DNA from: Flavobacteriales bacterium BRH_c54 | GTDB taxonomy: Bacteria > Bacteroidota > Bacteroidia > Flavobacteriales_E > Vicingaceae | NCBI GenBank assembly: GCA_000961845.1 | Contig: LADZ01000031.1 | Location: forward strand, 1 to 54,849 | DNA length: 54,849 bases | Direction: 5' to 3' | Part shown: positions 10,998 through 32,497 of the stretch, piece by piece | Layout of the letters: every line of letters begins with the position of its first letter | Numbering within the stretch: position 1 is the first letter of the stretch | Position numbers and translations under genes: made by a program | The notes under the pieces: model-generated | Told to the model about the DNA's origin: nothing | Databases searched by the model: none | What the model saw: the letters and a program-made list of their open reading frames with translations, nothing else

Positions 10998-12596
10998 TTA
11001 ATTTGAGGCTAATTCTTTTTTAAATTCAGAAGTAGTATGGAAAGTTATTTCGGGGTAATCAGCTTGTGCACTTTGTAATAAAAAGGCACTTTGAGCTAAG
11101 AAAACATCATTTCCATCTTTATCTATAGCAATGTACTGACTTTTTCGCATTTTAAATTCTTCTATTTTTGCCTCATTGTCCGAAGTCATCCAACAAGCTT
11201 TATGCAAGCTTTTAGCTTCAAACTCTGCCGATGCTCCATACTCATGTTTTAAACGATGTTGAATAACCTCAAATTGTAATTCTCCAACTGTACCAACAAT
11301 TTTTCTGTTACCCGGTTGTTGAATAAATAACTGAGCCACACCTTCATCCGTAAGTTGCTGAATACCTTTTTCCAGCTGCTTGGTTTTCATTGGGTCTTTA
11401 TTAATAAGCTCCTTGAAAATCTCTGGAGAGAAACTTGGAATTCCTTGGAATTCTATTTTTTCTCCTTCGGTAAGCGTATCGCCAATTTTAAAATTTCCCG
11501 CATCATATAAACCAATTACATCACCCGGAAAAGCTTCATCAATTACGCTTTTATCCTGAGCCATAAAACTGGTAGGATTATTAAATCTTAATTTTTTATC
11601 CGTAGCAACATTGTAGTAAAACTTATTTCTTTCAAACGTTCCCGAACAAATTCTTAAAAAAGCAATTCTATCTCGGTGTTTAGGGTCAAGGTTAGCGTGA
11701 ATTTTAAAAATAAACCCTGTAAAATTAGGTTCTGTAGGTTCTACCATTCTTATGTTGGTTGCTCTGCTTCTTGGGCTTGGAGCAATTGCTAAGAAAGTAT
11801 CTAACAATTCCTGTACACCAAAATTGTTAAGGGCACTACCAAAAAATACGGGAGCCAATTCTCCTGCACGATATTTTTCTACATCAAATGCATCATAAAC
11901 TCCTTCAATAAGCTCTACATCTTCTCTTAGTTTTGGAGCGTCATCTTCAATTATTTCATCCAATAAAGGATCATTTAGGTCTTTAATGCTTACAATCTCT
12001 CTTTCAATTTTTGTTTTATTGGAATCAAATAAATTCAGGTGTTTTTCATATAAATTATAAACCCCTTTAAAAGTTGCCCCAATACTTATGGGCCAGCTTA
12101 AAGGTCTTACTTTTATGTCTAAAGTAGTTTCAATTTCATCTAACAAATCAAACGGATTTTGACCTTCTCTATCCATTTTGTTGATGAAAACAATAACGGG
12201 CGTATCTCTCATTCTACAAACTTCCATTAACTTTTTGGTTTGAGCTTCCACACCATTGGCACAGTCAATAACCAAAATAACGCTATCTACGGCTGTTAGT
12301 GTTCTGTAAGTATCTTCAGCAAAATCTTTGTGACCAGGAGTGTCTAGAATATTGATTTTAGTGTCTTTATAATTAAAAGCCATTACGGAGGTGGCAACAG
12401 AAATTCCTCTTTGCTTTTCAATTTCCATAAAATCGGAAGTAGCAGTTTTCTTAATCTTATTAGATTTTACAGCTCCTGCCGTTTGTATCGCACCACCAAA
12501 TAACAATAATTTTTCGGTAAGCGTTGTTTTCCCCGCATCGGGATGACTAATAATGCCAAAAGTTCTTCTTTTTGCTATTTCTTTCTCTAAACTCAT
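10998..12596 (-). CDS. prfC: Peptide chain release factor 3 (GTPase)
   Basis: Recycles RF1/RF2 from the ribosome after peptide release. 532 residues, close to the 529 of E. coli. The GTPase motifs are complete: G1 '[12 protein letters not shown]', G3 '[12 protein letters not shown]' and G4 'FINKMDR'. The RF3-specific C-terminal region ('[22 protein letters not shown]') separates it from EF-G and LepA. The ATG lies at 12594-12596, only four bases downstream of a TANNTTTG-type -7 box. It forms the left border of the defence island. Confidence 0.95.
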
Positions 12597-12600
12597 GCTG

Positions 12601-12608
12601 CAAAATTA
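12601..12608 (-). promoter_or_regulatory. Candidate -7 box of prfC
   Basis: On the minus strand TAATTTTG matches the Bacteroidota TANNTTTG box and ends four bases before the prfC ATG. No TTG was found at the proper -33 distance. If used, the transcript would start at or next to the ATG and be nearly leaderless. Confidence 0.4.
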
Positions 12609-12690
12609 GTTTTTTTTTGTGGATAGACAGCTTCCGATAAAGGGTTTGTAAAAACTGCCAACTACGCACCCTTTAACCCCCTATAAACAG

Positions 12691-12720
12691 TTGGTTAAAT
12701 TAAAATAAATGTTATATTTG
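12691..12720 (+). promoter_or_regulatory. Promoter of the Hachiman operon
   Basis: TTG (12691-12693), then exactly 19 bases, then TATATTTG (12713-12720). This is an almost ideal match to the Bacteroidota -33/-7 consensus (TTG-N19-TANNTTTG). It lies about 90 bases upstream of the hamA ATG and leaves an untranslated leader of roughly 80 bases. Confidence 0.65.
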
Positions 12721-12809
12721 TTGGGTATAAGAAATACTCATGCAATTAACATAAAGCGTTGCGGAAATAAAGAAGTCATACTAAATCAACTGCAAAATAA
12801 ACAGACAAT

Positions 12810-13726
12810 ATGGATTTTGAAATACTAATCAATAATACTTTTTCAGACATAAACTCTGATAAAACTATATTTCCTGTTGCAAACAAGAATGTTATTAGTA
12901 TGATAAATAGTTTTGAAGCTACAGAATGGAGGTACAATCATTTTCAAAATTTCATTTGGGACAATATCGCTGAAACATCATTATCGCATAGAGAAAGAGA
13001 AAGTCTAGTGAATAACCATCATTCTTTATTAACCTATGCAGCAAAAAATTTAAGACTTTCTGATAAATTAGGCGATATTAGTAAAGGAAGTGAAATTGCG
13101 GAAATTGTTCTATACGCTATAATGAAACATCATTTCAATGCATTACCTGTAGTTCCAAAAATATTTTACAAACAAAATGCCCAAGACAATGCTAAAGGAG
13201 CCGACAGCGTGCATATAATTATAGAAAACGATACTGATTTTTCTATTTGGTTTGGAGAAGCAAAATTTTATAACAGCATTGAAGATGCTAGAATACCTGA
13301 AATAATTACGTCCATAGAAAATCTTTATTAACTGAAAAACTCAAAAAAGAGAACAGTATAATAACGAATTTGCCTGATATTGATTCATTGATTGGTAATG
13401 AGACTTTAAGAAATTCAATCAAAGCAGCACTTTCCCCAAGAGAATCCATAGATTTAATAAAGCCCAAACTGCATATTCCTATATTGCTATTATATGAATG
13501 TACTATAACACAAAAACAGAGTGTGGTTTCGGATTACTATAAAAATGAATTAATTGAATACCATAAAAATAGAGCAGAATCATTTTTCAAAAAACAATTG
13601 AGCAAAATTGGGGGCATACCACACTATTCTGAAATCAAATTTCATTTGATTTTATTTCCTGTTCCTCTCAAAAAAACAATTGTAGATAGGTTTGTTTCAA
13701 TGGCTGACTTTTATAAAAATTCTTAA
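12810..13726 (+). pseudogene. hamA: HamA (DUF1837) nuclease subunit of a Hachiman defence system, split by a frameshift
   Basis: The first frame (12810-13331, 173 residues) contains 'KGSEIAEIVLYAIM', then 'AKGADSVHI' and 'FSIWFGEAKFYNS'. These match the DUF1837 PD-(D/E)xK-like core, with D132, E150 and K152 as likely catalytic residues. It stops at 13329-13331. The rest of the domain continues in the -1 frame ('LTEKLKKENSIITNL' onward) to the stop at 13724-13726. That frame is closed by a TGA at 13298-13300, so the break lies within 13301-13331, an A/T-run-rich stretch. Restoring one base would give a protein of about 305 residues, normal for HamA. It may be a mutation or a sequencing error; the catalytic core lies before the break. 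hamB starts three bases after the stop. Confidence 0.75.
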
Positions 13727-13729
13727 TCA

Positions 13730-15856
13730 ATGGAAATCTTTGACACTTGCCATCTAATTAATAATTACTTAATTGAAAACGAAGAGGTTCAGGCTAGAAA
13801 TGAATTAATTAAACTATTGGATTACCATGAAAGAAATGAAATTGAATATTCACCATTAGTGAATCATTTAATTCGTGAAACAGGTTTATATCCTTATCTA
13901 AAAGTGGACACAGCTAATTGGGAGGACAGATTTGTATATGAGATATTCAAAGTAGATATAGGAGGCAAACAAGCTACATTACATAGAGAACAATCGTCAT
14001 TATTAAAACGATTAGTTAATGGAGAGAATATTGCTGTAAGTGCTCCAACAAGCTTTGGAAAAAGTTTCGTTATTGATGCTTTTATTTCATTAAAAAATCC
14101 AGATAATGTAGTAATAATTGTGCCCACAATAGCTTTAACAGACGAAACCCGTAGGCGTTTGTACAAGAAATTTGCTCATAGGTATAAAATAATTACAACT
14201 ACTGAAGTAGAACTTGCTGATAGAAACATCTTTATTTTCCCGCAAGAAAGGGCAATGAATTATGTAAATAAAATTGACAGTATTGATATATTAATAATTG
14301 ATGAGTTTTATAAAGCAAGTTCTGTTTACGATAAATCAAGGTCTCCTTCTTTGTTAAAAGCAATCATCAAATTAGGTTTCAAATCAAAACAAAAATATTT
14401 TCTAGCTCCTAACATTACTTCAATTGGTGCTAATGTATTTACTAAAGATATGGTGTTTGAGGATAAATTAGGATTTAGTACAGTTTATCTTGAACGATTT
14501 GAACCATACAAAGAAATTGAAGGAGATAGAATTCAAAAAGAACTTCAAAAAGGTGAAGTTCTTCTAGAAATTCTTGAAGAAACAAAAACGAAATCGCTTA
14601 TTTACGCAGCGTCTTATCCTCAAATTGATAAAGTTTCAAACCTATTAAATGAACATCTACCAATTTCAGACAAGCCTTTATTGGTTGAATTTGCCAATTG
14701 GCTTACCATAAATTATGGTGCTAATTGGAAGCTAACTAATCTTGTCAAAAGAGGTGTAGGAATTCATAACGGACAATTGCACCGTTCCATAAGTCAAATT
14801 CAAGTAAAACTATTTGAGGAGCAAGCAGGTTTAAATAACATTATTTCTACTTCATCAATAATTGAAGGTGTAAACACATCTGCAGAGAATGTTATTATTT
14901 GGCGAAATCGAAAAAGTGGAGGAAACAGCATTTTAGATAGTTTTACCTACAAAAATATTATAGGCAGAAGTGGTAGAATGTTTAAGTATTTTATTGGTAA
15001 AATTTATTTGCTAGAACCACCACCGCAAGAAGGGACAACTCAACTTGATATTCCATTTCCCGATACAATTTTAGGAGATTTGGATGAAAATGTATATAGT
15101 TCAAGTTTAGATAATGAACAAATCGCCAAAATTGTAACTTTTAAAAATGAAATGTATGAAATACTAGGAAAGGAAACATACGATAGGCTTTTAAAAGAAA
15201 ATATATTCCAATCCAATAATTCGGAGTTTATAAAAGAGACAGCAAAACAAATGAAATCTAATCCAGAAGATTGGAATGGTCTTTCGTACTTAAATTCAAA
15301 TGAACCCGAATCATGGGACAGGCTTCTCTGGAAAATTATCAGTTTACAACCAGGAGAATGGGGTGACGGTCCTTATGGAATTCAACACAAAAAATTTGTG
15401 GAATTTGTTAAAGTTTTAGTTGAGAATTGGGGTAGTACAATTCCTGAACTATTAGATGAATTGGATGAATTTGATATAGATATTGAACAATTTTTTAAAT
15501 TGGAAAGAACGGCTGCATTTAATTTATCATCCTTAATTAGCGACATAAATATTCTTCAGAAAGAAATAATTGATAACGGAACGGACGTCTCACCATTTGT
15601 TTCTCGAGTATCACACGCCTTCTTGCCTTCAGTTGTATATCAACTTGAAGAATACGGACTGCCAAGAATGATTTCAAGAAAACTTCACCAGAATGGTGTG
15701 ATTAATTTTTTGGATGATGGTTTGAATATTCATAATACAATAGAAATATTCCATGAAATGGGAAAGGAAAATGTTTTTTCATTTGAGTTTTTGGATTCAT
15801 TTGATAAATATATTATTGATTATTTTTATGATGGAATTACTATAAATCAAAATTAA
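13730..15856 (+). CDS. hamB: HamB, SF2 helicase of a Hachiman defence system
   Basis: A 708-residue superfamily 2 helicase. Motif I is 'SAPTSFGKS' (K111), motif II 'DEFYKAS' (D191-E192, an unusual DEFY box), motif V lies around 'SSIIEGVNTSAENVII' and motif VI is 'IIGRSGRM' (412-417). In Hachiman systems HamB scans or unwinds DNA and controls the HamA nuclease. The ATG at 13730 lies three bases after the hamA stop, and the downstream unknown gene begins one base after the hamB stop, indicating one transcript. The C-terminal ~250 residues have no motif I can name. Assignment rests on the helicase motifs plus the adjacent DUF1837 gene. Confidence 0.78.
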   Translation: MEIFDTCHLINNYLIENEEVQARNELIKLLDYHERNEIEYSPLVNHLIRETGLYPYLKVDTANWEDRFVYEIFKVDIGGKQATLHREQSSLLKRLVNGENIAVSAPTSFGKSFVIDAFISLKNPDNVVIIVPTIALTDETRRRLYKKFAHRYKIITTTEVELADRNIFIFPQERAMNYVNKIDSIDILIIDEFYKASSVYDKSRSPSLLKAIIKLGFKSKQKYFLAPNITSIGANVFTKDMVFEDKLGFSTVYLERFEPYKEIEGDRIQKELQKGEVLLEILEETKTKSLIYAASYPQIDKVSNLLNEHLPISDKPLLVEFANWLTINYGANWKLTNLVKRGVGIHNGQLHRSISQIQVKLFEEQAGLNNIISTSSIIEGVNTSAENVIIWRNRKSGGNSILDSFTYKNIIGRSGRMFKYFIGKIYLLEPPPQEGTTQLDIPFPDTILGDLDENVYSSSLDNEQIAKIVTFKNEMYEILGKETYDRLLKENIFQSNNSEFIKETAKQMKSNPEDWNGLSYLNSNEPESWDRLLWKIISLQPGEWGDGPYGIQHKKFVEFVKVLVENWGSTIPELLDELDEFDIDIEQFFKLERTAAFNLSSLISDINILQKEIIDNGTDVSPFVSRVSHAFLPSVVYQLEEYGLPRMISRKLHQNGVINFLDDGLNIHNTIEIFHEMGKENVFSFEFLDSFDKYIIDYFYDGITINQN

Positions 15857-15857
15857 T

Positions 15858-16187
15858 ATGACACTAGAAGATTTTAAAAGGGATTTCTGCTTTAAAGTAG
15901 AGATATTAAATCAAGGAAACATTAACTTTATAATTACAACGGTTGCAATAAGGCGTCAGAACAACCAAGTAGTTGATAAGGTGAAAACTACAATTGATAT
16001 TCAGGAAACAACTAATTGGATTGTTGATAGCAACTCGATGGCTTCTATAACATCTTGGAATTGGGATAAATTGCTTGATGAAACAAAAAGAGCACATTTA
16101 GACTATTTTGCACAAAGAGCGCCTATTGATGATTGGTATCCTTTAAACAAAATTGAGAATCCTGACATTTCAAATTTATATTGTTAA
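15858..16187 (+). CDS. Small unknown protein of the Hachiman operon
   Basis: 109 residues starting with ATG one base after hamB ends, so it is almost certainly co-translated with it. I do not recognise the family. It has no signal peptide, membrane segment or cysteine motif. The N-terminal half looks beta-rich ('CFKVEILNQGNINFIITTVAIRR'). The C-terminal half is rich in Trp and acidic residues ('SWNWDKLLDETKRAHLDYF', 'APIDDWYPLNK'). Canonical Hachiman has only hamA and hamB, so this is either an accessory subunit, a regulator or an unrelated passenger. Confidence 0.6.
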   Translation: MTLEDFKRDFCFKVEILNQGNINFIITTVAIRRQNNQVVDKVKTTIDIQETTNWIVDSNSMASITSWNWDKLLDETKRAHLDYFAQRAPIDDWYPLNKIENPDISNLYC

Positions 16188-16334
16188 TACTTATAAAAGA
16201 AGAACGAAGGAATAACAGGACTTATTAAAAGTGGCGGTTTAGTGGTATTAAGTTCGCAGCTAAATTATGTCCTATGTTCGGAAATTTATACTGATTACTT
16301 ATGTTCTATATAATAAACAAAGCTCAAAAATTAT

Positions 16335-16342
16335 TATCTTTG
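16335..16342 (+). promoter_or_regulatory. Candidate -7 box of the cytosine methyltransferase gene
   Basis: TATCTTTG matches TANNTTTG and ends four bases before the ATG at 16347, the same spacing as at prfC. No convincing -33 TTG was seen. The rest of the 159-base gap (16188-16346) holds no gene; TATGTTC occurs twice about 28 bases apart, of unknown meaning. Confidence 0.35.
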
Positions 16343-16346
16343 AAAA

Positions 16347-17384
16347 ATGATAAGATTAGATAATAAAAATTTAATTGAATATAAATTTATCGACCTCTTT
16401 GCGGGGATTGGAGGGTTTCATTTAGCTTTAAATTCTTTTGGTGCAGAGTGTGTTTTTGCTTCAGAGTGGGATAAATATGCAGCTGAAACATATGAGAAAA
16501 ATTTCAACTTAAAACCCCATGGAGATATTACGGAAATAGACGAAAAAGATATATCAAATCATGATATTTTGTGTGGAGGTTTTCCTTGTCAGGCATTCTC
16601 AATTGCAGGTAAACAAAAAGGATTTGAAGATACAAGAGGGACATTGTTTTTTGATATTGCCAGAATAGTAAATCATCATAAACCAAAAGTTTTATTTTTA
16701 GAAAATGTTAAAAATTTAGTCAGACATGATGAAGGTAAAACATTAAAAACAATTATTAAAACATTAGAAGAATTACAGTATAGTGTTTTTACCAAAGTTT
16801 TAAATTCAAGTCATTTCGGATTGCCACAAAACAGAGAAAGGATATACATTGTTGCCTTTCATAATTCAATAGAATCGACATCTTTTAGGTTTCCTAACCC
16901 CCCAAATGAGCCTGTTTGTTTAGAATATATTTTAGAAAATGAACCAAAAAATGCAAAAATAATTGAAAGAGACGATATAGAAATTTATAAGAATTATACG
17001 GTTTCAAAATCTTTATTTTCTGAAATGGAATTACTTAATAAACCTATTCAAATAGGCAAAGTAAATAAAGGTGGACAAGGAGAAAGAATTTACCATGTTT
17101 TAGGTCATGCGATTACACTTTCTGCTTATGGTGGAGGAGTAGGTTCAAAAACCGGATTGTATTTAGTTAATGGAAAAATCAGAAAACTTTCTCCGAGAGA
17201 ATGTGCAAGAGCTCAAGGATATCCTGATGATTACATAATAAACCCTATTGACACTCAGGCATACAAACAGTTTGGAAATAGTGTTTCTGTAAATGTTTTA
17301 CAGCATATTCTTACAGAAATAAGTAAAGTATTAGAAAAGAATAAAGTGATAAATATTAATAAAACTGAATTTGTATATGCGTAA
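16347..17384 (+). CDS. DNA (cytosine-5-)methyltransferase, M.HhaI-like (predicted GCGC)
   Basis: 345 residues with all C5-methyltransferase motifs. They include the AdoMet loop 'FIDLFAGIGGFHLAL', the catalytic 'GGFPCQAFSIAGKQKGFED' with C81, 'FLENVKNLVRHDEGKTL', 'QNRERIYIV' and the C-terminal 'QAYKQFGNSVSVNVLQ'. The sequence follows M.HhaI almost collinearly as I remember it, including the same Cys number. The target-recognition stretch 'KGGQGERIY' ... 'AITLSAYGGG' ... 'KTGLYLVNGKIRKLSPREC' is also shared. This makes GCGC the likely target, protecting host DNA against the endonuclease that follows. It overlaps the endonuclease gene by eight bases. Confidence 0.92.
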   Translation: MIRLDNKNLIEYKFIDLFAGIGGFHLALNSFGAECVFASEWDKYAAETYEKNFNLKPHGDITEIDEKDISNHDILCGGFPCQAFSIAGKQKGFEDTRGTLFFDIARIVNHHKPKVLFLENVKNLVRHDEGKTLKTIIKTLEELQYSVFTKVLNSSHFGLPQNRERIYIVAFHNSIESTSFRFPNPPNEPVCLEYILENEPKNAKIIERDDIEIYKNYTVSKSLFSEMELLNKPIQIGKVNKGGQGERIYHVLGHAITLSAYGGGVGSKTGLYLVNGKIRKLSPRECARAQGYPDDYIINPIDTQAYKQFGNSVSVNVLQHILTEISKVLEKNKVININKTEFVYA

Positions 17385-18129
17385 AGAACAAATTTTGGGT
17401 TCACAAACCGCAAAAAATGGTTTTTTGAATGAAGATGATATCATTAAGAAGTTTAATGATTGGAAAAAAGATGAAGATGCACAGAAGTGGTTAGTAATAA
17501 TGGAATATCAACTTGACGAAATTGAATATGTTAAAGCGGTTAAGTTGAGTGGGTTTAAAACAGATGTGCAAGTTCAGGTAACCATAAAATTAAAAGAAGC
17601 AATTGACGCACAAAATTTACAAGTTAAATTAGTGAGTAATCCTAAAGGATTTAATCAAATTGATAAAAGATGGGTTGATAAATATGTTGAAATGTGGGAT
17701 ATACCAACACAAATAGTATCGATATTTAAGAGATATACAGGAGAAGAAGAACCAAACATCAATAATCCGAAAGATAAACGCAGAATGTTTGCTAATGAAT
17801 TTACAGAACAAGAACAAAATCAAATTCTTTCGTGGTTAAATAAAAATAAGTCTTTAATTGTTTCAGATATTTTAAAAGGACGTGGTCAGTTTTCAGCAGA
17901 GTGGATGTTAGTTGCTCAAAAAATTAAAGAAAATTCGAGATGGATTTTAAAACCAATGAATTTTTGTTTAAATCATTTTGGAAATGGAGAAGTTGAAATG
18001 ACAAAACAAGGGAATTTTAAAATAGGAAGAATAACAATGCAAAGAAAAGGTGGAGATAATGGTAGAAAAACTGCTAGAATGCTACAGTTTAAGATAAATC
18101 CAGCAGAATTGTTTGAAGCAGAATCATAA
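17377..18129 (+). CDS. Type II restriction endonuclease, R.HinP1I-like (predicted GCGC)
   Basis: 250 residues from the ATG at 17377; a TTG two codons earlier is also open. The sequence tracks R.HinP1I (247 residues, cuts G^CGC) along its length: 'GSQTAKNGFLNE', 'KAVKLSGFKTDVQVQV', 'NLQVKLVSNPKGFNQIDKRW', 'NNPKDKRRMF', 'DILKGRGQFSAEWMLVAQK' and 'TMQRKGGDNGRKTARMLQFK'. The PD-(D/E)xK-type catalytic residues D62, Q81 and K83 of HinP1I correspond to D63, Q82 and K84 here, with the same Q replacing the usual acidic residue. The reading frame is intact. The gene overlaps the methyltransferase, so the methylase is translated first. No controller protein gene is present. Confidence 0.92.
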   Translation: MRKEQILGSQTAKNGFLNEDDIIKKFNDWKKDEDAQKWLVIMEYQLDEIEYVKAVKLSGFKTDVQVQVTIKLKEAIDAQNLQVKLVSNPKGFNQIDKRWVDKYVEMWDIPTQIVSIFKRYTGEEEPNINNPKDKRRMFANEFTEQEQNQILSWLNKNKSLIVSDILKGRGQFSAEWMLVAQKIKENSRWILKPMNFCLNHFGNGEVEMTKQGNFKIGRITMQRKGGDNGRKTARMLQFKINPAELFEAES

Positions 18130-18252
18130 TAGAAATGATTTGTTGTGCAAGTTTTTTTCTAAATCCACTATGGGTTATTAATAAGTTTTAAGCTCCCCAA
18201 AAGTTTAAAAACATCTTCCACTAATTTACTGCTGTTCTACTAAGAAAATTAC

Positions 18253-18260
18253 TACTTTTG
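18253..18260 (+). promoter_or_regulatory. Candidate -7 box of hpt
   Basis: TACTTTTG matches TANNTTTG and lies 19 bases before the hpt ATG. No clear -33 TTG was found. The remaining 150-base gap after the endonuclease gene holds no gene and no recognisable attachment site. Confidence 0.4.
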
Positions 18261-18279
18261 CAATCCAATTTTCATAAAA

Positions 18280-18819
18280 ATGGGTAAGATAACAATTAAG
18301 GATAAAACCTTTAAACCATACATTTCTGCTGAGGAGCTGCAAACTTCCATAAGTAAAGTTGCTAACGAAATTAATATGCACTACAGTGGTAAATCGCCTA
18401 TTTTTATCGGAGTACTAAATGGTTCGTTTATGTTTATGAGCGATTTATTGAAAGAAATCAACCTGCAATGTATGGTTTCTTTTGTAAAGTTAGCTTCTTA
18501 TGAAGGAACTACTACTACAGGAAAAGTAAACGAGTTAATAGGATTAAATGAAGATATAGAAGGACAAGATATTATTTTGGTAGAAGACATTGTAGATACC
18601 GGAAATACCTTGGTTAAGTTGTATGAAATTTTACAAAATAAAAAAGTAAATTCTATAAAAATTGCTTCATTGCTATTTAAACCTGAAGCTTATCACAAAC
18701 CTTATCCGATTGACTATATAGGCAAAGAAATTCCAAATGCTTTTGTGTTGGGCTACGGGTTAGATTATGATGGTTATGGCAGAAATCTCAGTTCAATTTA
18801 TGTGTTGGATGAACAATAG
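18280..18819 (+). CDS. hpt: Hypoxanthine phosphoribosyltransferase
   Basis: Salvages hypoxanthine (and usually guanine) with PRPP to give IMP/GMP in the cytoplasm. 179 residues with the type I PRTase signature 'VEDIVDTGNT' at 101-110, preceded by 'SFVKLASYEGTTTTGKV', the flexible loop with its Ser-Tyr pair. The C-terminal 'VLGYGLDYDGYGRNL' holds the purine-binding aromatic region and Asp. ATG at 18280. It opens an hpt-adk-obgE run and marks the right border of the defence island. Confidence 0.92.
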   Translation: MGKITIKDKTFKPYISAEELQTSISKVANEINMHYSGKSPIFIGVLNGSFMFMSDLLKEINLQCMVSFVKLASYEGTTTTGKVNELIGLNEDIEGQDIILVEDIVDTGNTLVKLYEILQNKKVNSIKIASLLFKPEAYHKPYPIDYIGKEIPNAFVLGYGLDYDGYGRNLSSIYVLDEQ

Positions 18820-31394: not shown

Positions 31395-32462
31395 TTATAT
31401 CACATCATAATCTATCACTAACTTATCTGAAGCCGGGTGAGCTTGACAAGTTAAAATAAATCCTTCGGCTACTTCTTCGTCAGAAAGAGCATAATTCATT
31501 TCCATAGTAGCTTTTCCTTCAATAATTTGGGCTTTACAAGTGCAACATACCGCACCTTTGCAAGAAAAAGGAGCATCAGCACCTTGTTCAATAGCAGTGT
31601 CTAAAATAGTTGCTCCTTTGCTATTCAAATCAAATTCAAACTCTTCGCCATCCATAATTACCGTTACATGGCTTGTTCCTTCGTAAGAAGAATCAGGCGC
31701 TGTTTGTTCTAGTGAATCCGCTTTTTTAACGGGAGTAGTAAACAATTCAAAATGAATTTTTTCATCAGCAACGCCCATCTTTTTAAAGGTTTCGTTTACT
31801 GTGTTTATCATGGCTTCCGGTCCACAAATATAAAAACCATCAGCTTTTAGTATTTCTAAATTTAGTTTAATGAAGTCGTTCATTTTCTGCTCATCAATTC
31901 TCCCACATTGAATAGGATCTAATTGTTTGGCAGCACCTTCATCGTATGTAAAATGTACTTTAAAATTAGCAGGATGATTAGTAGTTAATTTTTCTAACTC
32001 TTGTTTAAAAATAGTATTTTCTTCATTTACATTACCATAAAAGAGAGTGAATTTTCCTCCTGCTTTAATTACTGATTTCAACAAGGAAAAAACAGGGGTA
32101 ATTCCACTACCTGCAGCTACACCAACTATATTGGCAGTATGGTTTTTAGCTACAAAATTTCCAGCAGGAGGCATTACTTCTAATGTATCACCTACTTTCA
32201 ACTCATTGTTTAAAAAACCAGACATTTTCCCATTATCTATTTTTTTTACACCAATTCTTATTTCTTCTTCAAAAGGCGTACTACAAATAGAATAAGACCT
32301 TCTAATATCTTCACCATTAACAATTCTTTTAATTGTAACATATTGTCCGGACTCAAATACAAACGTATTTTTTAAATCGGCAGGAAGTTCAAACGCAATA
32401 GAAACTGCTTGAGAAGTTTCTTTTCTAATATCTTTAACTTTTAGGGTGTGAAAATGACTCAT
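31395..32462 (-). CDS. paaE: Phenylacetyl-CoA 1,2-epoxidase reductase subunit PaaE
   Basis: 355 residues from the ATG at 32462 ('MSHFHTLKVKDI'); an upstream TTG adds ten unconserved residues. A ferredoxin-NADP reductase module has the flavin motif 'RRSYSICS' and the NAD(P) motif 'GVAAGSGITPVFS'. It is followed by a plant-type [2Fe-2S] domain, 'SCKGAVCCTCKAQ' (C-x4-C-x2-C) plus 'LTCQAHP'. PaaE passes electrons from NADPH to the PaaABC oxygenase. It is divergent from paaABCD, unlike the single paaABCDE operon of E. coli. Confidence 0.93.
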   Translation of the reverse strand: MSHFHTLKVKDIRKETSQAVSIAFELPADLKNTFVFESGQYVTIKRIVNGEDIRRSYSICSTPFEEEIRIGVKKIDNGKMSGFLNNELKVGDTLEVMPPAGNFVAKNHTANIVGVAAGSGITPVFSLLKSVIKAGGKFTLFYGNVNEENTIFKQELEKLTTNHPANFKVHFTYDEGAAKQLDPIQCGRIDEQKMNDFIKLNLEILKADGFYICGPEAMINTVNETFKKMGVADEKIHFELFTTPVKKADSLEQTAPDSSYEGTSHVTVIMDGEEFEFDLNSKGATILDTAIEQGADAPFSCKGAVCCTCKAQIIEGKATMEMNYALSDEEVAEGFILTCQAHPASDKLVIDYDVI

Positions 32463-32489
32463 TCTTTCTGTTTTTCTTTTTAATTCGGG

Positions 32490-32497
32490 CAAAAGTA
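32490..32497 (-). promoter_or_regulatory. Candidate -7 box of paaE
   Basis: TACTTTTG on the minus strand, 27 bases before the paaE ATG. A TTG at the expected -33 distance is not clear. It shares the 197-base intergenic region (32463-32659) with the paaA promoter, so a regulator bound here could act on both directions. Confidence 0.4.

What the first reader, a model, noticed from the sequence alone, without database searches (positions are those of the whole stretch)
12810..16187. Hachiman-type defence locus with a frameshifted hamA and an extra third gene
Seen: a DUF1837-like D...ExK core (D132, E150, K152) directly upstream of an SF2 helicase with a DEFY motif II, under a near-perfect Bacteroidota promoter. 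Known: HamA (nuclease) plus HamB (helicase) form Hachiman. hamA is broken, yet the catalytic core lies before the break and hamB is intact. The system may be dead, phase-variable, or working with a 173-residue HamA plus a separately made C-terminal piece.
Basis: partly seen in the sequence, partly recalled or inferred. Interest (0 to 1): 0.72.

Follow-up and report, generated by a model that had tools for sequence, protein, structure and literature searches.

The report
Hachiman phage-defence locus, nuclease gene broken
This is an ordinary two-gene anti-phage system (Hachiman) in a bacterial genome whose DNA-cutting gene carries a single-base frameshift, so the system is probably switched off; an uncharacterised small third gene rides with it.

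Summary
12810-13331 and 13370-13726 are two halves of one HamA, out of frame with each other. 13730-15856 is a full-length HamB; 15858-16187 is a third gene with no known family. In the 14 relatives that hold both hamA halves, hamA is one unbroken frame; this copy is a base short. The break follows the D-GExK active site and removes about 132 of 305 residues, including the part that maps by offset to E. coli HamA 159-199, reported essential for defence. No slippery heptamer, no run over 4 bases in the 31-nt overlap, and only TTG/GTG starts for a C piece of useful length: phase variation and programmed frameshifting are not supported. No clear decay since the break: it is recent, or an assembly error that I cannot exclude. 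Hachiman shares a 5.6-kb island with a HinP1I-like R-M pair at a prfC-hpt junction that is empty in one same-genus genome and holds other restriction-modification genes in another. The third gene lies inside the unit in three loci, has its own transfer history, and recurs near some other defence genes. Its function is unknown.

The parts
12624..18212 (.). Exchangeable defence island between prfC and hpt (Hachiman unit plus type II R-M)
   Evidence: G002 joins window 12623 to 18213 with about 40 other bases between; G004 holds an HTH gene, an N6-methylase gene with an HSDR_N part and a Methylase_S gene there
12691..12720 (+). Bacteroidota-type promoter-like match TTG-N19-TATATTTG, 89 nt before the hamA start
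   Evidence: consensus recalled; weak (about 2% by chance in the intergenic stretch)
12810..13331 (+). hamA, N-terminal part (173 codons) with the complete D132...G149-E150-A-K152 motif, ending at a frameshift-caused TAA
13301..13331 (+). 31-nt overlap of the two hamA reading frames, where the break must lie
   Evidence: no X-XXY-YYZ heptamer, longest run 4 bases; spacing 47 nt here, 48 nt in the eight relatives measured
13370..13726 (+). hamA, C-terminal remainder, frame open from 13301, first common start codon TTG at 13370, only ATG at 13700
13730..15856 (+). hamB, intact SF2 helicase of 708 aa
   Evidence: PADLOC HamB2 1.3e-234; PDB 8zue_B 1.6e-56
15858..16187 (+). ORF3, 109-aa third gene starting 1 nt after the hamB stop; no known family
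   Evidence: no match in PADLOC or NCBIfam up to E 1, best Pfam E 0.035 (under cut-off), best PHROGs E 0.1; homologues
16347..17384 (+). C5 cytosine DNA methyltransferase (neighbouring type II R-M)
   Evidence: PF00145 4.8e-102
17371..18129 (+). R.HinP1I-like restriction endonuclease
   Evidence: PF11463 2.6e-88, profile 1-208 of 208; PADLOC REase_II 1e-114

Best explanation
A horizontally acquired Hachiman locus (PADLOC HamA2/HamB2 models) whose hamA has recently lost its reading frame by a one-base change, leaving hamB intact. [quoted passage not shown] coli Hachiman; inferred here from homology). Here only a 173-residue HamA with the catalytic residues but without roughly the last 132 residues would be made, so the system most likely gives no defence. 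HamB may also be made less well, because hamB begins 3 nt after the hamA stop codon and ribosomes now leave hamA about 400 nt upstream (inference). Shown: the break in this assembly, the intact relatives, the family membership, the island. Inferred: loss of function, horizontal origin and effect on HamB.
For: Both hamA pieces and hamB match Hachiman models. 14 of 14 relatives holding both hamA parts have them in one frame, giving 305-312 residues from the start of the match; the 15th, L004, is cut by its contig end. In 395 genomes of the window's own phylum, none of the 18 HamA match rows outside the own genome has a stop inside. C-piece dN/dS against six relatives is 0.062-0.089; 0.046-0.119 in the nine relative pairs computed. 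At sites invariant in seven close relatives, the window has 3 of 171 (N), 3 of 118 (C) and 7 of 708 (HamB) private changes, against 0-2, 0-2 and 2-9 in its four nearest kin. A model of the intact relative L010 puts two strands and several helices after residue 174 and matches E. coli Hachiman structures 8zue_A (Z 13.8, rmsd 4.5, 244 aligned) and 8vx9_A (Z 10.1, rmsd 4.9, 211 aligned) over nearly its full length. PMC12278908 (sections 8, 9, 13 read) reports HamA 159-199 as a HamB contact region essential for defence; setting E150/K152 against E138/K140 puts the break near E. coli residue 161.
Against: No reads, expression or phage data. The structure model has mean pLDDT 62. The mapping to E. 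coli numbering is by offset from the active site, not by a residue alignment. Lack of clear decay in the C piece would also fit a C piece still in use or an assembly error. It is not perfectly clean: against L001, the window has about twice the hamA dN/dS (N 0.054, C 0.087) of the L001-L007/L008/L010 pairs (N 0.023-0.032, C 0.046-0.051), while hamB does not; the rise is in both pieces and the counts are small.
Confidence: 0.74

Rival explanations
1. The frameshift is an assembly or sequencing error and the strain has a working Hachiman system.
For: No clear decay of the C piece; one genome per species is held and read depth cannot be seen.
Against: All 41 other window ORFs tested run in one frame in G002 and/or G004, and there is no run longer than 4 bases in the overlap.
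Confidence: 0.15
2. A two-piece HamA works: the N piece carries the active site and a C piece made by re-initiation, or by a low level of frameshifting, completes the fold.
For: The catalytic motif lies whole in the N piece; the C frame is open for 141 codons with no clear relaxation.
Against: No slippery heptamer and no long run; the only common starts for a C piece of useful length are TTG/GTG, the first 38 nt past the stop; no relative examined is split.
Confidence: 0.06
3. Phase-variable hamA switched by slippage at a repeat.
For: Some defence genes are phase-variable (general knowledge, recalled).
Against: Longest run in the 31-nt overlap is 4 bases; no other genome of the same species was available to show the other phase.
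Confidence: 0.03
4. The locus has been co-opted: HamB and ORF3 now act without HamA.
For: hamB and ORF3 are intact; some ORF3 homologues sit near other defence genes.
Against: In E. coli, deleting HamA abolished defence (PMC12278908, section 9); a recent break leaves little time for a new role.
Confidence: 0.02

Closest known systems
Escherichia coli HamAB (Hachiman; PDB 8vx9, 8vxy; PMC12278908)
   Same: HamA nuclease with D-ExK motif and SF2 helicase HamB; a model of an intact close relative of this HamA matches 8vx9_A at Z 10.1
   Different: This hamA is frameshifted; a third gene follows hamB; a HamA profile from this clade finds no HamA chain in the PDB by sequence at E up to 1
E. coli Hachiman structure 8zue, chain B named Anti-bacteriophage protein B
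   Same: Best PDB sequence match to HamB (1.6e-56) and best fold match to the HamA model (Z 13.8)
   Different: Its chain A is 531 residues, with the HamA-like part at 275-537 of the entry's numbering; HamA of the relatives here is a lone domain of about 305 residues
Hachiman with added genes, e.g. HamMAB nuclease-protease pairs (PMC12799240; passages and section 5 read)
   Same: Extra gene beside hamAB; such additions are gained repeatedly by different systems
   Different: ORF3 is 109 aa, matches no nuclease or protease family, and HamA here keeps its D-GEXK motif

Membership tests
Hachiman (HamA-HamB) | HamA / DUF1837 domain protein | tested here: met
   Both pieces over the Pfam HamA cut-off (130.5 and 54.7 bits against 25)
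Hachiman (HamA-HamB) | D...(G)ExK nuclease motif in HamA | tested here: met
   D132, G149, E150, K152; invariant in the 14 relatives aligned
Hachiman (HamA-HamB) | hamA as one intact gene | tested here: not met
   Frame broken between 13301 and 13331; intact in 14 of 14 relatives. The locus is filed as a broken member, not as a working system
Hachiman (HamA-HamB) | Adjacent SF2 helicase of the HamB type, full length, with helicase motifs | tested here: met
   PADLOC HamB2 over 18-719 of 721; motifs
Hachiman (HamA-HamB) | HamA fold like solved HamA | tested here: met
   Tested on the intact relative L010, not on the window protein: Z 13.8 and 10.1, model pLDDT 62
Hachiman (HamA-HamB) | Anti-phage activity, DNA-damage-triggered DNA degradation | not testable with these tools
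   Needs a bench test
Nuclease-protease Hachiman (HamMAB) | MBL nuclease plus trypsin-like protease fused to HamA | tested here: not met
   The genes beside this hamAB are ORF3 and an R-M pair; the hamA frame holds no further domain
Type II restriction-modification (HinP1I-like) | C5 methyltransferase with R.HinP1I-type endonuclease | tested here: met
   PF00145 4.8e-102 and PF11463 2.6e-88

The most novel reading that the evidence does not exclude
ORF3 is a small, exchangeable accessory protein (a regulator, inhibitor or trigger) that different DNA-acting defence systems pick up repeatedly as a last gene. It sits inside the Hachiman unit in three loci with signs of separate history, directly behind a type IIG R-M gene in another genome, and near restriction-type genes in two more.
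Probability: 0.25. Interest if true: 0.5.

Novelty: new member of a known kind. Interest (0 to 1): 0.3.

Why it matters
It looks like a defence system caught soon after losing its nuclease in an exchangeable prfC-hpt island; two of its 15 relatives have broken hamB instead, which fits a cost of carrying Hachiman. The unnamed third gene gives a concrete, testable candidate for a shared accessory component of defence systems. Otherwise the locus is ordinary.

Tried and rejected
Programmed -1 frameshifting and transcriptional slippage: scanned the 31-nt overlap, no canonical heptamer, longest run 4. Structured RNA: Rfam, no match up to E 1 in 12500-18400. sigma-70-type promoters: 39 found against 32.6 +/- 6.7 in shuffles, no signal. 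Terminators: 2 found, 1.8 expected. ORF3 by structure: AlphaFold2 on 3 sequences gave pLDDT 60.8; Foldseek best E 1.1, not used. ORF3 by family: of 9 members scanned in Pfam, only the window's has any match up to E 0.1 (0.035, under cut-off); best PDB sequence match E 0.062; none in phages, plasmids or viral contigs. Hachiman on plasmids: no DNA match. HamA by sequence in PDB: none for the N piece up to E 1, and only a neck protein at E 0.72 for the 14-sequence profile.

Integron-cassette idea: sharp unit ends at GTTATGC and GCATAAC in relatives, and one L001 stretch folds like an attC (z -1.56, 17 of 200 shuffles as good). Against it: the window's own 3' stretch folds no better than shuffles (z 0.07); in 8 genomes the integron-integrase model finds only matches under its cut-off (best 3.6e-38), and such matches also ring in all 14 control genomes; the exact 14-base 3'-end motif occurs once in each of 2 of 10 genomes, at the units themselves; the loop motif occurs once in the own genome. 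Left as a lead only.

Literature: 'Hachiman' with 'frameshift' and 'pseudogene' gave one paper, on Xylella, seen as a listing only. Searches were seen as listings and abstract starts only and are not used as evidence.

Full report
Observation. The N-terminal 173 codons of hamA end in a TAA at 13329-13331. The rest of hamA is open in another frame from 13301 to 13726; its first common start codon is a TTG at 13370 and its only ATG is at 13700. Pfam HamA matches the N piece (1.2e-37, profile 2-126 of 230) and the C piece (1.7e-14, profile 146-230), both above the curated cut-off. PADLOC's HamA2 model gives 4-174 and 192-308 of 308 for the two pieces, and its HamB2 model covers 18-719 of 721 in HamB at 1.3e-234. 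The catalytic residues D132, E150 and K152 are present, as are HamB's APTSFGKS, DEFY and NIIGRSGR. DEFY is usual in this clade: 15 of 15 relatives show it, L014 after its change of frame.

The break. HamB found 15 relatives in genomes of other species. In 14 of them both hamA parts are held, in one frame, giving 305-312 residues from the start of the match; L004 starts inside hamA. Codon 171 and the start of the C piece are 48 nt apart in the eight relatives measured and 47 in the window. In a sample of 395 genomes of the window's own phylum (unnamed by the tool; I take it to be Bacteroidota), 18 genomes have HamA, the own one included; none of the 18 match rows outside the own genome has a stop inside, though some of those matches cover only part of the profile. 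HamB itself (E up to 1e-50) occurs in 1 of 100 relatives searched, the own genome, and close copies (up to 94% identity) lie in other genera, so I infer horizontal transfer.

Is it an artefact? Of the 49 window ORFs of 100 aa or more, 6 lie in the island and 2 overlap other genes on the opposite strand; the other 41 were compared with two same-genus genomes. All 41 run in one frame in at least one of them (31 found in G002, 40 in G004); for one of them, 31395-32492, both relatives carry a stop in the aligned stretch, which I did not follow. So frame breaks are not common in this window, but I cannot see reads.

Could it still work? The overlap of the frames is 31 nt (13301-13331); it has no X-XXY-YYZ heptamer in frame and no run over 4 bases. 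This speaks against programmed frameshifting and slippage-based phase variation. dN/dS of the C piece against L001, L002, L007, L008, L010 and L013 is 0.062-0.089 (window against L003 gave no dS), and 0.046-0.119 in the nine relative pairs computed, those that begin with L001 or L007. Set only against the L001-L007/L008/L010 pairs, window pairs with L001, L007, L008 and L010 have higher hamA values in both pieces (N 0.053-0.056 against 0.023-0.032; C 0.069-0.087 against 0.046-0.051) but not in hamB (0.037-0.050 against 0.046-0.070). Private changes at sites invariant in the seven other copies are 3 of 171, 3 of 118 and 7 of 708 for N, C and HamB in the window, and 0-2, 0-2 and 2-9 in L001, L007, L008 and L010. 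A slight relaxation of hamA is possible; strong decay is not seen. So the break is recent, or the piece is still used, or it is an error.

In E. coli Hachiman, HamA contacts HamB by residues 30-63, 102-117 and 159-199, the last described as essential for defence, and removal of HamA helix-loop-helix motifs blocks function while cells stay viable (PMC12278908, sections 8, 9 and 13). Setting E150/K152 against E138/K140 places the break near E. coli residue 161. A model of the intact relative L010 (mean pLDDT 62) fits 8zue_A (Z 13.8, rmsd 4.5, 244 aligned) and 8vx9_A (Z 10.1, rmsd 4.9, 211 aligned) and puts two strands and several helices after residue 174. I therefore think the N piece does not fold or bind HamB properly and the system is off; this is inference.

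Decay elsewhere. Of the 15 relatives, two have broken hamB in these assemblies: L014 (frame change near codon 31) and L015 (in-frame stop at codon 597 of the matched frame). Breaks in either gene fit a cost of carriage; ectopic Hachiman is described as mildly toxic (PMC12278908, passage in the discussion).

The island. In G002 the window's 12623 and 18213 are joined with about 40 other bases between. In G004 the same junction holds an HTH gene, an 884-aa gene with N6_Mtase (4.4e-24) and HSDR_N_2 matches, and a Methylase_S gene (6.2e-21). The other three same-genus genomes are not informative: G001 and G003 have prfC but no hpt beside it in the stretches fetched, and G005 gave only short matches. 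So prfC-hpt is, on two comparisons, a site of exchange of defence genes. The window's island carries hamA-hamB-ORF3, then a C5 methyltransferase and an R.HinP1I-like endonuclease.

The third gene. ORF3 starts 1 nt after hamB's stop. Homologues of 55% identity follow hamB directly in L001 and L002 and were not found in the other 13 relatives' stretches. L001 and L002 differ by dS 0.22 in ORF3 and 1.87 in hamB, and ORF3 dN/dS is 0.14-0.27 in the three pairs, so ORF3 is under constraint and has been exchanged apart from hamAB. In L001 and L002 it lies between hamB and the same unit end (GGCGAAGGCATAAC) that follows hamB directly, with small changes, in L007, L008 and L010, so it is inside the unit. 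Profiles found it in 2 of 395 genomes of the phylum sample and 6 of 395 of the class sample, own genome included in both. Of nine members aligned, three follow hamB; one follows a type IIG R-M gene by 37 nt (L066); one abuts a gene weakly like Stk2 (4.8e-10 over about 100 residues) with a type I R-M gene three genes further upstream (L068; this member is only 22% identical to the window's); one lies about 690 nt from an HSDR_N gene (L033); and three (L064, L065, L067) have no defence gene that I recognised, with only some of their neighbours profile-searched. No family or fold was found. This is a lead, not a demonstrated component.

Verdict. The third gene is the part worth a test.

Noticed in passing
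L001 2932-6378, L007 4032-7152, L008 4032-7152, L010 4033-7152: In these relatives the hamAB unit has sharp ends: homology begins within a base of GTTATGC (GTTATGT in L008) 47-48 nt before hamA and, among L007, L008 and L010, stops 11-36 nt past GCATAAC or a near copy; beyond that the flanks do not align. This looks like an integron-type cassette, but no integron integrase over the cut-off was found and the window's own 3' stretch does not fold better than chance.
   Followed up: partly
L014 5001-7084 and L015 5001-7091: hamB is broken in two relatives: a frame change near codon 31 in L014 (Acinetobacter sp. ANC 3789) and an in-frame stop at codon 597 in L015 (Neisseriaceae MAG).
   Followed up: partly
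L011 7146-11301 and L012 7147-11302: Behind hamB lie a 367-aa gene with a weak metallo-beta-lactamase match (2.2e-4, just under cut-off) and a protein of about 1030 aa with a weak trypsin-like match (4.7e-4, under cut-off) (L011 only; L012 by likeness), resembling the nuclease-protease pairs of PMC12799240, here beside a HamA that keeps GEAK and is not fused to the protease.
   Followed up: partly
window 16347-18129: Intact C5 methyltransferase and R.HinP1I-like endonuclease share the island with Hachiman; recognition site not tested.
   Followed up: partly
L030 12312-16346 (G004): The same prfC-hpt junction in a same-genus genome holds an HTH gene, an N6-methylase gene with an HSDR_N part and a Methylase_S gene.
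   Followed up: partly
window 31395-32492: This ORF aligns over its full length with two same-genus genomes that each carry a stop in the aligned stretch; probably an over-extended TTG start.
   Followed up: no
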